DNA of 37,450 nucleotides, from the NCBI RefSeq assembly GCF_000403395.2, contig NZ_KE159677.1:35145-72594 (forward strand), given 5' to 3'. The position numbers and the translations under genes were made by a program. The stretch comes from Anaerotruncus sp. G3(2012). GTDB lineage: Bacteria; Bacillota; Clostridia; Oscillospirales; Ruminococcaceae. This document shows positions 29,728 to 34,263 of this stretch, piece by piece; positions within the stretch are counted from its first letter, which is position 1; each line of letters begins with the position of its first letter. The notes beneath the pieces were generated by a model. The model was not told where the DNA came from. It was given only the letters and a program-made list of their open reading frames with translations, and searched no databases.

Positions 29728-29753
29728 GAAAAAAACGGATGGAGGACTTTGCC

Positions 29754-30206
29754 ATGAAACTTGCGGAAGCATTGCAGCTTCGTACCGGCCTGCAAAAACG
29801 GATCAGCCAGCTTTCCAGCCGTCTGTGCAACAACGCAACCGTCCAAGAAGGGGAAAAGCCCGCCGAGGACCCGGCCGCCCTGATGGAGGAATATGAGGAC
29901 TGCGTCGCCCAGCTGGAAGGATTGATTGCCCGGATCAACCGCACCAACAGCGAAACCCGGACCGAATCCGGCACGCTGACCGAGCTGCTGGCCCGCCGGG
30001 ACTGTCTGAAGCTGCGGCTGCAAACCTATCATGATTTCCTGGCCTCCGCCAGCAGTCTGACCCGCCGGGCCACCCGTTCGGAGATCCGGATTCTAAGCAC
30101 CATACCGGTGCCCGAGTACCAGAAAAAGGCGGATGTGCTTTCCCGCCGGCTGCGGGAGGTGGACAACGCCATCCAGTCCGCCAACTGGTCCACCGAGCTT
30201 TTGTAA
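29754..30206 (+). CDS. DIP1984-like family protein
   Basis: The 150-residue soluble helical protein starts MKLAEALQLRTGLQKRISQLSSRLCNNATVQEGEKPAEDP and has YEDCVAQLEGLIARINRTNSETRTESGTLTELLARRDCLKLRL, the signature of DIP1984/septicolysin-like small proteins. Its biochemical role is unknown. Length matches the family. GGAGG stands about 8 bases before the ATG at 29754, right behind a strong promoter, so it is a single-gene unit. It is one of the few plus-strand genes here. Confidence 0.88.
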   Translation: MKLAEALQLRTGLQKRISQLSSRLCNNATVQEGEKPAEDPAALMEEYEDCVAQLEGLIARINRTNSETRTESGTLTELLARRDCLKLRLQTYHDFLASASSLTRRATRSEIRILSTIPVPEYQKKADVLSRRLREVDNAIQSANWSTELL

Positions 30207-30309: not shown

Positions 30310-30801
30310 TCAGTTGATTTCACGCACCAAGAGACCCTGTTCGGCACCCGTTTGCGGGCACCTTTTCGACCGATGATACTCTGTCAATAAAACCAGATTC
30401 TCAAATTTTTCCGGCTCCTGATAGCGTTTTCTTCCGCTCTCTTCCCGAATTACCATCACTTCTCGCCCCAATGATTCAGGAACTGCGCGATAAACCGTAT
30501 ACGACCGGGATACTCCTTCCTCATCGGCCACCGTGATCCGAAGGATCGCCCCACCGCCCCGCTTTATAATCTGCCCATCCCGATCCCGCAGATCGGACCC
30601 ATCCGAAAGCAGGCAGCAAAGCTGCTCGATTTCATCCGGACAGTTGAGCCGCTTCTCTGCGAGCACCTCTCCTTTTGATGTTTCGTATAAGAGCGTCGCT
30701 GATTGTCCTGCGTAAATCTTTACACAGGATAACCCTATCAGCAATAGTGCTATCATGATTCCCGCGAAAAATTGCAGAAAATTTCGTTTTATATTCCCCA
30801 T
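30310..30801 (-). CDS. Membrane-anchored or exported protein paired with the peptidase
   Basis: The 163-residue protein is not recognised. It has one N-terminal hydrophobic helix (residues 9-28, FAGIMIALLLIGLSCVKIYAG) as anchor or signal, then about 130 residues with a beta-rich look (SATLLYETSKGEVLAEKRL; GGAILRITVADEEGVSRSYTVYR; GREVMVIREESG). The ATG at 30801 lies 5 bases after the peptidase stop codon and has no good ribosome site, so it is probably translated by coupling. Being made from the same message as an exported cysteine peptidase, it might be its inhibitor, chaperone or substrate, but nothing proves this. Confidence 0.65.
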   Translation of the reverse strand: MGNIKRNFLQFFAGIMIALLLIGLSCVKIYAGQSATLLYETSKGEVLAEKRLNCPDEIEQLCCLLSDGSDLRDRDGQIIKRGGGAILRITVADEEGVSRSYTVYRAVPESLGREVMVIREESGRKRYQEPEKFENLVLLTEYHRSKRCPQTGAEQGLLVREIN

Positions 30802-30806
30802 GATTT

Positions 30807-31901
30807 TCAAGTTGTTATCGTTGAATACCAGTTGTATACAATGCTTCCATATGTGTATTGGAAATTCAGTGCAGAGGAGGGACTTCCTTTTTTGTAGAGC
30901 CATTTATATGTTCCACTATTAGAATCGCTTACTCTAATGCCGTACTCCCCTGCAAGAGAATCGGAAGAAAAGCCGCAAAGCACTGTGTAATGCGCAAAAT
31001 TTGTAGATTGCCAATTAATAATACCAGGTTTCTGGTTATTCATGTATGTTTTAACTTGATTAGGTGTTAGTTTTCCTTTTTTGCTTCCTGTTATATCATA
31101 ACACTTGCTTAAAGCGTTTACAACATCTGAATCATACGCTCCCTCATTATAACCTATTCCCATTTTATCAGCAATCTGCAAAGGAGTATATTTGTTGCTT
31201 TTTGTCAAAAATTTCCCTGTTAACATCACTGAAACGGCCCAGCATTCCCCATAAGACTGCTTATAGGTTCCTACATTTACCTCTATTACCTGAGCCCCTC
31301 TTGACTGCAACGGAATGTCTAATGAATATCGTTCTTTCGCTGAGTAATAGTCCGTTGGATTCATATCTTGCCCCATCTTTTTATCACTATAACCATTCTC
31401 TAAATGCTCTATTGAAGAGCTTGCAAAGCTGTACTCCTCAATTATCTGTACATCTTCATCTGTTTTAAAATAAAGACTATCATTAGTGACTATAATGCAA
31501 AAATCTTCTTGTCCATTATTTAAGTATTTGTTTATATTCGATGCCCAGTCCTGACTAAAAGAATACGTTGGGCTTGCCTTATCTCCGTGGACGCCCAATA
31601 CGCCTATAACTACATTATTTAAATACACAGGATAATAACTGACTTGACTAAATTCTGAAATGTTAAAATCTGTATACTCATAAACAGGTATTTGGCCTCC
31701 AAGCTGTAACTGATCTCCACTAATCAAGGGAGTCTCTTTTTCCGTTACCATCCAACTTGATAGTAAGTTTTGTATACAAGATAATTGCTCCTCAGAAAAA
31801 ATTTCATGAATATTGTCTGATTTCCCGGATGCAAATGCCACCACTGATAGACTCATCAATACTGCTATCGACACAACAAAGCTTATAATTTTTTTTAACA
31901 T
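30807..31901 (-). CDS. Exported papain-like cysteine peptidase
   Basis: The 364-residue protein has a signal peptide (MLKKIISFVVSIAVLMSLSVVAFASG), a propeptide-like region of about 180 residues, and a C-terminal papain-like domain. The nucleophile appears in YGECWAVSVMLTGKFL (Cys about residue 219), the His in NFAHYTVLCGF (about residue 307), and the third residue probably in VSDSNSGTYKWLY. The spacing resembles C39-like/staphopain-like peptidases. Substrate unknown; it should act outside the cell. GGAGAT precedes the ATG. The gene is distinctly AT-rich against its neighbours, a sign of transfer. It heads a two-gene unit with its own strong promoter. Confidence 0.8.
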   Translation of the reverse strand: MLKKIISFVVSIAVLMSLSVVAFASGKSDNIHEIFSEEQLSCIQNLLSSWMVTEKETPLISGDQLQLGGQIPVYEYTDFNISEFSQVSYYPVYLNNVVIGVLGVHGDKASPTYSFSQDWASNINKYLNNGQEDFCIIVTNDSLYFKTDEDVQIIEEYSFASSSIEHLENGYSDKKMGQDMNPTDYYSAKERYSLDIPLQSRGAQVIEVNVGTYKQSYGECWAVSVMLTGKFLTKSNKYTPLQIADKMGIGYNEGAYDSDVVNALSKCYDITGSKKGKLTPNQVKTYMNNQKPGIINWQSTNFAHYTVLCGFSSDSLAGEYGIRVSDSNSGTYKWLYKKGSPSSALNFQYTYGSIVYNWYSTITT

Positions 31902-31995: not shown

Positions 31996-32024
31996 TTATA
32001 ACACATTTAATATTTTTTGTAAAT
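31996..32024 (-). promoter_or_regulatory. Sigma-A promoter of the peptidase operon
   Basis: On the minus strand TTTACA (32024-32019), a 17-base spacer and a perfect TATAAT (32001-31996) with an extended TGT in front. The leader is about 90 bases with no obvious small reading frame. Confidence 0.87.
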
Positions 32025-32049
32025 ACATTATTAATATTTATTATATGAG

Positions 32050-32083: not shown

Positions 32084-32432
32084 CGATGCTGTTCAGCCCG
32101 GATGGACAGCTGGCGGATTCAGCAAAATGTTCTGCAGGGGGGCGTTGCCCACGGACTGCAAACGATAAGCCTGTTGGTAGCCGCAGACAGGGCGAATGCG
32201 ACCGCTTCCGGCCGTGGAAAGAGCCGGACATGGTTCTGTGAGGGACCGAGCATATGGACGCGCAGAAGGGCCTGCGTGCGGGGTTCGATTCCCCGGTTGA
32301 TTGTTATGCCCAGCATTGTAACACGCGCATTGTTACCACTGACACTGCACAACCACGCATTGACTGTTGCGGCGAGGGAGGGTACGGGGATTCTTAAAAC
32401 AGGCAGGAACGGCCGGATGAGGCCGTTTTTTT
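32084..32432 (+). ncRNA. Candidate structured non-coding RNA, about 350 nt
   Basis: A GC-rich block in AT-rich surroundings, with no credible reading frame on either strand, ends in a strong terminator. It can form at least seven successive hairpins: 32088-32094/32104-32110, 32133-32137/32156-32160 with inner GGGC-GCCC, 32170-32174/32187-32191, TCCGGC/GCCGGA (32207-32228), GGTTC/GGACC (32232-32247), CGCAG/CTGCG (32261-32276) and GTAAC/GTTAC (32318-32336). A further arm, CGGGG-TTCGATT-CCCCG (32279-32295), copies a tRNA T-arm exactly, but no acceptor stem is present. The extent is inferred from a weak promoter and the terminator. It does not match tmRNA, RNase P, SRP or 6S RNA as I know them. 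The raiA motif and other large bacterial RNAs are worth testing. Start is uncertain. Confidence 0.6.
32408..32432 (+). terminator. Rho-independent terminator of the candidate RNA
   Basis: AACGGCC and GGCCGTT form a 7-bp stem with a 6-base loop (32415-32420), followed by an unbroken run of T to 32432. No protein-coding gene on the plus strand precedes it within more than 2 kb, so the transcript it ends must be an RNA beginning nearby. Confidence 0.9.
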
Positions 32433-33573: not shown

Positions 33574-33822
33574 CAATCGGAAAGGAATCTTTGCGTTATG
33601 AAAAAACAGAAAAAATATGCTGCATCGGTAATAGCAGAAAGCCGGGAGGTTTGCTGTTAGAATCGAAGTACTCGTATTTCAGCGTTTTGACGATATCGTC
33701 AAACGGCTTCAGTGCCACCCCGCATTGAAAGCCGCGGGCATAAGCCCGCCGGTGTATGGAGTGCACCTTTGGCTATCAACCTCCCGGAAGGATGTGAAAA
33801 AACATACTTTTCGGAGGAGCTT
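33574..33822 (+). other. Leader region of the RNHCP gene with palindrome and hairpin
   Basis: This 249-base gap holds three things. A possible 20-codon reading frame (33598-33660, starting MKKQKKYAAS) has a mediocre ribosome site. A perfect 18-base palindrome, TTTGACGATATCGTCAAA, is at 33686-33703 and looks like an operator for a dimeric protein. A stable hairpin, GCGGGC-ATAA-GCCCGC, is at 33734-33749. I see no convincing promoter. Confidence 0.5.
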
Positions 33823-34263
33823 ATGAATCGCGAACAGAAACGAATCCAAAAACAAAAGGGATATTATAAAACGCACGCGTGTCACGACAGCTTTACCTGT
33901 AAAGTCTGCGGACGTCCGGTCGTTGCGGCAGGCGCAGGGAGCGACCACCGCAACCACTGCCCCAACTGCCTATCCAGCCTGCATGTGGACGAACTGCCCG
34001 GAGACCGCGCATCCGAATGCGGCGGCATCATGGAGCCGATCGGTGTGTGGGTGCGCAAGGGCGGCGAATGGGCAATCATCCACAGGTGCCGCCGCTGCGG
34101 GAAGCTCAGTTCCAACCGCGCTGCCGCGGACGACAACCCGATGAAGCTGATGTCCATTGCCATGAAACCGCTGGCCGAACCGCCGTTCCCGCTGGAACGG
34201 ATCAGCGAATTGACCGCGCTCATGGGCGGAGCAGGCTCGTTAGAGCCAGATTCGCATTTTTAA
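33823..34263 (+). CDS. RNHCP domain protein
   Basis: The 146-residue protein is of the RNHCP family, named for the motif seen here as HRNHCPNC (about residue 46). Four pairs of cysteines, CKVC, CPNC, the C in SECGGIMEPIGVWVRKGGEWAIIHRC and CRRCGK, form zinc-ribbon-like sites, so it probably binds zinc and perhaps nucleic acid; the role is unknown. Length is slightly above the minimal family. GGAGG stands 5 bases before the ATG at 33823; an in-frame ATG upstream at 33712 overlaps the leader hairpin and is rejected. It ends right at a bidirectional terminator. Confidence 0.88.
   Translation: MNREQKRIQKQKGYYKTHACHDSFTCKVCGRPVVAAGAGSDHRNHCPNCLSSLHVDELPGDRASECGGIMEPIGVWVRKGGEWAIIHRCRRCGKLSSNRAAADDNPMKLMSIAMKPLAEPPFPLERISELTALMGGAGSLEPDSHF

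What the first reader, a model, noticed from the sequence alone, without database searches (positions are those of the whole stretch)
32084..32432. Candidate large structured RNA with a T-arm mimic and its own terminator
A GC-rich 350-base block lies between AT-rich DNA and the next gene. It has a run of at least seven hairpins and ends in an excellent terminator, yet encodes no protein and has no plus-strand gene before it. One hairpin, CGGGG-TTCGATT-CCCCG, is a perfect tRNA-like T-arm without the rest of a tRNA. This is what a conserved stand-alone RNA looks like. I cannot assign it to tmRNA, RNase P, SRP or 6S. It might be a known class such as raiA, or a new one.
Basis: partly seen in the sequence, partly recalled or inferred. 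Interest (0 to 1): 0.78.

Follow-up and report, generated by a model that had tools for sequence, protein, structure and literature searches.

The report
New tRNA-like RNA paired with DIP1984
The window holds a copy of a so far uncatalogued structured RNA that many bacteria and some phages carry next to the gene for one small protein of unknown job, which suggests that the two work together, perhaps on damaged RNA.

Summary
Window 32170-32390 (+) is one copy of a conserved structured RNA that no Rfam 15 family matches.

In relatives it lies 3' of a DIP1984-family gene (PF20935/NF038048), median gap 11 nt: 79 of 80 genome loci, 7 of 7 fetched plasmid/phage records, 5 of 5 viral contigs. In 247 same-family genomes: 29 have both, 4 protein only, 2 weak RNA only, 212 neither. 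In the window two minus-strand ORFs separate it from DIP1984 (29739-30206), so it needs its own promoter.

Covariation over 99 copies gives a long closing stem around three hairpins, the third a T-arm in 72, and a pseudoknot from the second loop to GCCC.

An A. baumannii plasmid has RtcB, unknown gene, DIP1984, RNA, RtcA; two viral contigs have the pair among tRNA genes. Best reading: a DIP1984-RNA particle acting on damaged or tRNA-like RNA, as Ro60 and Y RNA do. Binding, expression and function are untested; a key 2016 paper could not be read.

The parts
32170..32390 (+). conserved structured RNA (DIP1984-associated RNA)
   Evidence: covariance model R1, 139.7 bits, E 7.1e-50 (this copy is one of the 28 seed rows); the pairs of the final structure are all standard pairs in this copy
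32180..32199 (+). 5' strand of the long closing stem P1 (32180-32184, 32188-32190, 32193, 32195-32199)
   Evidence: 14 of 14 pairs with double changes over 99 copies; four of the 14 were added from the column-pair scan
32357..32373 (+). 3' strand of closing stem P1
32208..32227 (+). hairpin HP1 (stem 32208-32211 with 32224-32227)
   Evidence: 4 of 4 pairs with double changes, 87.4% of cells paired
32260..32277 (+). hairpin HP2 (stem 32260-32264 with 32273-32277); its loop holds GGGC
   Evidence: 5 of 5 pairs with double changes, 93.8% of cells paired
32268..32311 (+). pseudoknot: HP2 loop GGGC 32268-32271 with GCCC 32308-32311
   Evidence: 95.5% of cells paired, 29 double-change cells against 4.3 +- 1.9, 0 of 500 shuffles; pairs not in model R1
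32279..32295 (+). T-arm mimic, loop TTCGATT
   Evidence: T-arm found by pattern in 72 of 99 distinct copies, 0.5% of shuffled copies
32374..32390 (+). conserved G-rich tail GAGGGAGGGTACGGGGA, role unknown
   Evidence: present by pattern in 90 of 99 copies
32408..32432 (+). intrinsic terminator hairpin and T run
   Evidence: sequence; the automatic scan did not list it
29739..30206 (+). DIP1984 family gene, the RNA's genomic partner
   Evidence: PF20935 E 7.5e-53, NF038048 E 2.6e-56; AlphaFold2 model pLDDT 91.8 matches 3KDQ, TM 0.91
30310..31901 (-). two overlapping minus-strand ORFs, mostly AT-rich, that separate DIP1984 from its RNA here
   Evidence: one is a weak Peptidase_C70 match (E 3e-4)

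Best explanation
32170-32390 encodes a trans-acting structured RNA that is the dedicated partner of the DIP1984 protein. SHOWN: the RNA is conserved across bacteria, lies just 3' of DIP1984, co-occurs with it, and folds (by covariation) into a closing stem around HP1, HP2 and, in 72 of 99 copies, a T-arm, with an HP2-loop pseudoknot. INFERRED: it is transcribed with DIP1984 (or, as here, from its own promoter) and is bound by DIP1984 as a small RNP. The T-arm and cloverleaf-like plan let it contact or compete for tRNA-handling enzymes or tRNA-cutting nucleases, so that the RNP acts in sensing, protecting or repairing damaged tRNA or other RNA, a role proposed for Ro60/Y RNA in other RtcB operons.
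For: RNA 3' of DIP1984, same strand, in 79 of 80 genome-contig loci, median gap 11 nt from the end of the DIP1984 match to the RNA model start; 7 of 7 fetched records from Alpha- and Gammaproteobacteria, Cyanobacteriota, Actinomycetota and an Enterococcus phage contig (three hits weak, E 1e-4 to 4e-4); 5 of 5 viral contigs. Co-occurrence 29/4/2/212, Fisher p 3.7e-31, not corrected for kinship. 94.7% of cells paired against 67.0 +- 0.5 shuffled, slid controls 38-42%. Pseudoknot, not in the model: double-change cells, percentage paired and covariation score reached by 0 of 500 shuffles. Trans: window copy 1.96 kb from DIP1984 behind opposite-strand ORFs; G109 copy 460 nt away; G030 has two tandem copies. 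Tandem DIP1984 genes in G257 and G343 each have their own RNA (L164 and L165 by eye only). Context: RtcB-unknown-DIP1984-RNA-RtcA in A. baumannii; RtcB about 20 bp from DIP1984 in G201; 13 and 11 tRNA genes beside the pair in two viral contigs.
Against: No expression or binding data. RtcB is adjacent in only 2 of 138 sequences searched; the window's genome has no RtcB match; RtcB is in 12 of 33 DIP1984 genomes against 50 of 214 others (lists compared by hand). No recurrent gene neighbour besides DIP1984 among the neighbours scanned. 27 of 99 copies lack the T-arm, so tRNA mimicry is not essential. For the pseudoknot two measures are not exceptional: pairs with double changes (183 of 500 shuffles reach it) and further pair types (16 of 500). 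The only confident PDB match of the DIP1984 model is the family's own unknown-function structure.
Confidence: 0.55

Rival explanations
1. A cis-acting 3' UTR element: DIP1984 binds the 3' end of its own mRNA and controls its stability or translation; there is no free RNA.
For: In most loci the RNA starts within a few tens of bases of the DIP1984 end, median 11 nt.
Against: In the window it is 1.96 kb from DIP1984 with two opposite-strand ORFs between, yet every pair of the structure is a standard pair; other displaced copies are in L036, L075 and L199; tandem copies in G030, L199 and L201. A terminator follows the RNA in the window; a strict perfect-stem search found one in 12 of 79 loci, so this last point is weak.
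Confidence: 0.2
2. A type III-like toxin-antitoxin pair in which the pseudoknotted RNA holds a toxic DIP1984 in check.
For: Small protein plus structured RNA, scattered distribution, plasmids and phages, no fixed neighbours seen.
Against: DIP1984's only confident PDB match is its own family (3KDQ); the RNA lies 3' of the gene and is a single unit in most loci, unlike type III antitoxins (features recalled); no PADLOC match.
Confidence: 0.12
3. The RNA is bound by DIP1984 but unrelated to tRNA or repair, for instance a regulatory sRNA sponge.
For: RtcB absent from the window's genome and from most neighbourhoods; T-arm lost in 27 of 99 copies.
Against: Separate repair or tRNA contexts in Acinetobacter, G201 and two viral contigs.
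Confidence: 0.2
4. A decayed tRNA, tmRNA or gene remnant, or a chance hairpin cluster.
For: MFE z-score is only -0.64.
Against: Strong covariation and co-occurrence; ARAGORN and Rfam find no tRNA or tmRNA.
Confidence: 0.01

Closest known systems
Bacterial Ro60 (Rsr) with Y RNA / YrlA
   Same: Small RNA with a tRNA-like part next to the gene of an RNA-binding partner, found in rtcBA repair operons (PMC7790460, passages read); here DIP1984 and this RNA occupy a similar place in one A. baumannii operon
   Different: Partner is DIP1984, not TROVE; no Rfam family matches; TROVE absent from 6 of 6 genomes tested
'Novel tRNA-like molecule' of Burroughs and Aravind 2016 (gkw722)
   Same: As recalled from its abstract: a tRNA-like ncRNA and, separately, DIP1984-like proteins in RNA repair systems
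   Different: As recalled, that RNA is tied to SPFH/Band-7 modules; the paper is not held, so identity cannot be excluded
tRNA
   Same: Closing stem around three hairpins, third one a T-arm in 72 of 99 copies
   Different: A stretch of about 60 nt with one half of a pseudoknot between T-arm and closing stem; ARAGORN negative in the window
raiA / ModT RNA
   Same: Large structured RNA of Bacillota and other phyla (PMC11706538, start of abstract seen in the listing)
   Different: No raiA hit in the Rfam scans; sits next to DIP1984

Membership tests
   0 hits in the window; in 16 homologous loci only tRNA genes away from the RNA; at E<=0.5 nothing at the RNA in 20 loci. That these families are in the library is recalled
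tRNA / tmRNA | complete cloverleaf with anticodon, or tmRNA with tag | tested here: not met
   ARAGORN none in window; tRNA-Sec model 15.2 bits against gathering 47
Ro60-Y RNA system | TROVE-domain partner protein | tested here: not met
   partner is DIP1984; no TROVE in 6 of 6 genomes
Ro60-Y RNA system | place in an rtcB operon | tested here: inconclusive
   met in 2 of 138 sequences
HDV-like ribozyme | nested double pseudoknot (recalled), which here would need the GGT x ACC helix | tested here: not met
   that helix shows 87.3% paired against 87.1 in shuffles; self-cleavage itself not testable
Type III toxin-antitoxin | toxic endonuclease protein with upstream repeat RNA (recalled) | tested here: not met
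   RNA is downstream; no match of the model to a toxin of known structure at E<=0.001; toxicity itself not testable here
RNA repair (rtc) system component | consistent linkage to RtcB/RtcA | tested here: inconclusive
   present in A. baumannii and G201, absent in most
Burroughs-Aravind tRNA-like RNA | published sequence/structure | not testable with these tools
   paper not held

The most novel reading that the evidence does not exclude
An undescribed class of ribonucleoprotein, found in at least four bacterial phyla, on plasmids and in viral contigs: DIP1984 plus its own pseudoknotted, tRNA-like RNA, serving as a sensor, decoy or scaffold in tRNA damage and repair, parallel to but unrelated to Ro60/Y RNA.
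Probability: 0.45. Interest if true: 0.9.

Novelty: new variant of a known kind. Interest (0 to 1): 0.8.

Why it matters
It would give a protein family of unknown function (DUF6847, structure 3KDQ released 2009) a partner and a testable job, add a widespread RNA class to the catalogue, and show that RNA repair systems can carry a second kind of protein-RNA partner besides Ro60/Y RNA. It also bears on A. baumannii plasmid genes named 'septicolysin' and treated as toxin genes: at least one appears to be DIP1984.

Tried and rejected
HDV-like double pseudoknot: suggested by GGT x ACC, rejected when the larger alignment showed no covariation beyond shuffles. First pseudoknot proposal GGGCG x YGCCC (RNAalifold), replaced by HP2 loop x GCCC: in A4 the first is no better than shuffles, the second far better. 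tRNA-integration (att) remnant idea: dropped when the conserved RNA emerged. MFE stability as evidence: z -0.64, no support. RtcB as obligate partner: not supported. Recurrent neighbour genes: none seen; scanned were 46 of 74 upstream and 41 of 74 downstream neighbours (the same-strand ones less three from near-identical loci), minus-strand neighbours were not scanned, and the output shows only the first 25 of 50 and of 38 families. First MAFFT alignment A1 of 28 copies was poor and gave only one 5-pair helix, the one later rejected. The 751-base Rfam scan listed only chance-level hits.

Selection told: 41 candidate copies were tried, 11 dropped because a motif script did not find head or tail, 30 aligned, 28 of these 30 used for A3 (L076, a duplicate of L053, and L094, start not found, left out). 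This favours copies with the tail. The whole-structure counts include the two helices that were later rejected. A4 holds R1 matches at E<=1e-4 from 100 chosen sources, seed rows included (99 distinct of 100), and is fitted to the modelled stems but not to the pseudoknot. The pseudoknot columns were chosen after seeing A3; four closing-stem pairs were added from the scan, so one search is not independent of it. In one search one measure, pairs with double changes, was reached by 3 of 500 shuffles. In one search, 45 of 45 sources have a match, but L154 and L155 match over 40 bases and L156 over 112, weakly. L164 and L165 were read by eye only. In one search the structure given as a constraint folds to -79.3 against -79.5 kcal/mol for the free fold, but the program left at least one given pair open, so I do not use it as evidence.

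Full report
WHAT WAS CHECKED. The T-arm (32279-32295) and terminator (32408-32432) are there and the G+C step is real. ARAGORN finds no tRNA or tmRNA in the window and Rfam 15 nothing at gathering score in the whole window; a permissive scan of 751 bases gives five hits with E 2.5 to 5.9, all far below their thresholds. Folding alone does not support a special RNA: 26 of 100 shuffles fold at least as well.

THE LEAD. A DNA search of 197 same-family genomes gave 4 genomes with a match, one of them the window's own. In G094 the match lay directly behind a gene whose protein resembles that of the window ORF 29739-30206. That ORF is DIP1984 family (PF20935 E 7.5e-53; NF038048 E 2.6e-56). DIP1984 occurs in 33 of 247 same-family genomes, in 31 over the curated cut-off. 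Printing the DNA behind it in 30 loci showed a shared RNA-like block in most.

CONSERVATION. A covariance model R1 (191 positions) was built from 28 curated copies. R1 finds the RNA downstream on the same strand in 79 of the 80 genome loci, the exception being L145, whose contig stretch ends 278 nt after the gene; the median gap after the DIP1984 match is 11 nt, the largest 451. In 247 same-family genomes R1 rings in 31; with the DIP1984 tally this makes 29 both, 4 DIP1984 only (G080 at a contig end, G103, G109, G132 with a weak DIP1984 match), 2 RNA only (G231 and G241, weak partial hits) and 212 neither, Fisher p 3.7e-31 without correction for kinship. In a search of held loci the RNA is also found in G109, 460 nt beyond its DIP1984. 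G098 has only a fragment of DIP1984, with the RNA beside it.

TAXONOMIC REACH. DIP1984 is on 370 of 72,556 plasmid records and 5 of 50,697 phage records. I fetched 7 of these 375: Paracoccus versutus, Picosynechococcus, Mycobacterium branderi, Streptomyces, A. baumannii, A. schindleri and an Enterococcus phage contig. All 7 have an R1 hit just downstream, E 9e-34 to 4e-4, the two Acinetobacter and the Enterococcus hits being weak. Reading the weak ones by eye, the closing stem and a changed but matching loop-to-downstream pairing can be drawn (for example TGAGC with GCTCA in A. baumannii). Five viral contigs with DIP1984 all have R1 hits downstream, two of them two copies each. MAG labels such as Paludibacteraceae may be mis-binned and are not counted as phyla; the four phyla meant are Pseudomonadota, Cyanobacteriota, Actinomycetota and Bacillota.

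STRUCTURE. In 99 distinct copies (A4) I scored all pairs of well-filled columns by mutual information and kept pairable ones: the 24 strongest listed all lie in one long closing stem, HP1, HP2, the T-arm or a pairing of the HP2 loop with GCCC after the T-arm. The full structure, which takes four closing-stem pairs from that scan, has 94.7% of cells paired against 67.0 +- 0.5 in shuffles, 850 double-change cells against 237 +- 18, and 38-42% paired when slid. A4 was fitted to most of the stems, so those counts lean to them; the pseudoknot was not in the model and reaches 29 double-change cells against 4.3 +- 1.9. On the MAFFT alignment A3, made before any model, the outer and inner parts of the closing stem have double changes in 10 of 10 pairs, with 93.6% and 100% of cells paired, HP2 in 5 of 5, HP1 in 3 of 4 and the T-arm in 4 of 5. 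In the window copy the pairs of the structure are all standard. A T-arm (loop TTC or TCC, then R-A-N-Y, stem of at least 4) is in 72 of 99 copies against 0.5% of shuffled ones; a G-rich tail is in 90 of 99.

SURROUNDINGS AND FUNCTION. Neighbours are not conserved: the most frequent Pfam families among the 46 upstream and 41 downstream same-strand genes scanned have 3 and 4 members. The informative exceptions: an A. baumannii plasmid with rtcR (divergent), RNase Z, RtcB, an unknown gene, DIP1984, a 259-nt gap holding the RNA, then rtcA; G201, an unnamed relative in the window's family, with RtcB about 20 bp upstream of DIP1984; and two viral contigs where 13 and 11 tRNA genes lie within the 6.5 kb around the pair. 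RtcB lies beside DIP1984 in only these 2 of 138 sequences searched, and the window's genome has no RtcB match, at 96% completeness. PMC7790460 (passages read) describes rtcBA operons with Ro60 and tRNA-like Y RNA and suggests that the tRNA-like part could compete with an anticodon nuclease; PMC7824862 (passages read) describes TROVE with a tRNA-like partner as an RNP platform for RNA repair. PMC7652931 (passages read) reports rtcB and the gene after it as the most induced genes of A. baumannii under tigecycline. From these I infer a DIP1984-RNA particle in RNA damage, at moderate confidence.

THE WINDOW'S OWN COPY. Here DIP1984 ends at 30206 and the RNA starts at 32170; two minus-strand ORFs, mostly AT-rich, lie between. 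The RNA cannot simply be the 3' UTR of DIP1984; a promoter of its own is inferred. The scan offers only weak plus-strand candidates, such as TTGTAA-16-TATTAT at 32017-32044, 9 of 12, and about one such site is expected by chance.

NOVELTY. No Rfam 15 family matches. Full-text searches for DIP1984 (1 paper), for DUF6847/septicolysin/DIP1984 family (25 papers, 20 listed) and for RNA repair or large structured RNA with tRNA-like or noncoding RNA listed no description of such an RNA, judged from listings and the passages named. The library lacks the 2016 Burroughs and Aravind survey, whose abstract, as I recall it, names a novel tRNA-like RNA and, separately, DIP1984-like proteins. That is the main doubt about priority.

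Noticed in passing
L190 4007-4465; paper PMC3358182: The 'septicolysin' gene of A. baumannii plasmids, described as a pore-forming toxin gene, appears to be DIP1984: a primer printed in the paper (passages read) can be read as KLAEAL, the conserved DIP1984 start (my reading); the family has a solved helical structure of unknown function.
   Followed up: partly
window 30310-31901: Two overlapping minus-strand ORFs, mostly AT-rich, one a weak Peptidase_C70 match, lie between DIP1984 and its RNA; a strong promoter-like site (11 of 12) faces them at 32023-31995.
   Followed up: partly
window 33712-34263: RNHCP-domain protein (E 1.6e-39) close to the RNA.
   Followed up: no
L149/L165 and L150/L164: Two genomes carry two tandem DIP1984 genes, each followed by its own RNA (L164 and L165 by eye).
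   Followed up: partly
L048 1077-1486 (-), L201 3536-4013, L199 3995-4987: Two copies of the RNA behind one DIP1984 gene.
   Followed up: no
window 32374-32390: G-rich tail GAGGGNGGGNNNGGGGA, found by pattern in 90 of 99 copies but not seen in the two Acinetobacter plasmid copies; no pairing partner found.
   Followed up: partly
L198 and L202: In two viral contigs 13 and 11 tRNA genes lie within the 6.5 kb around DIP1984 and its RNA.
   Followed up: partly
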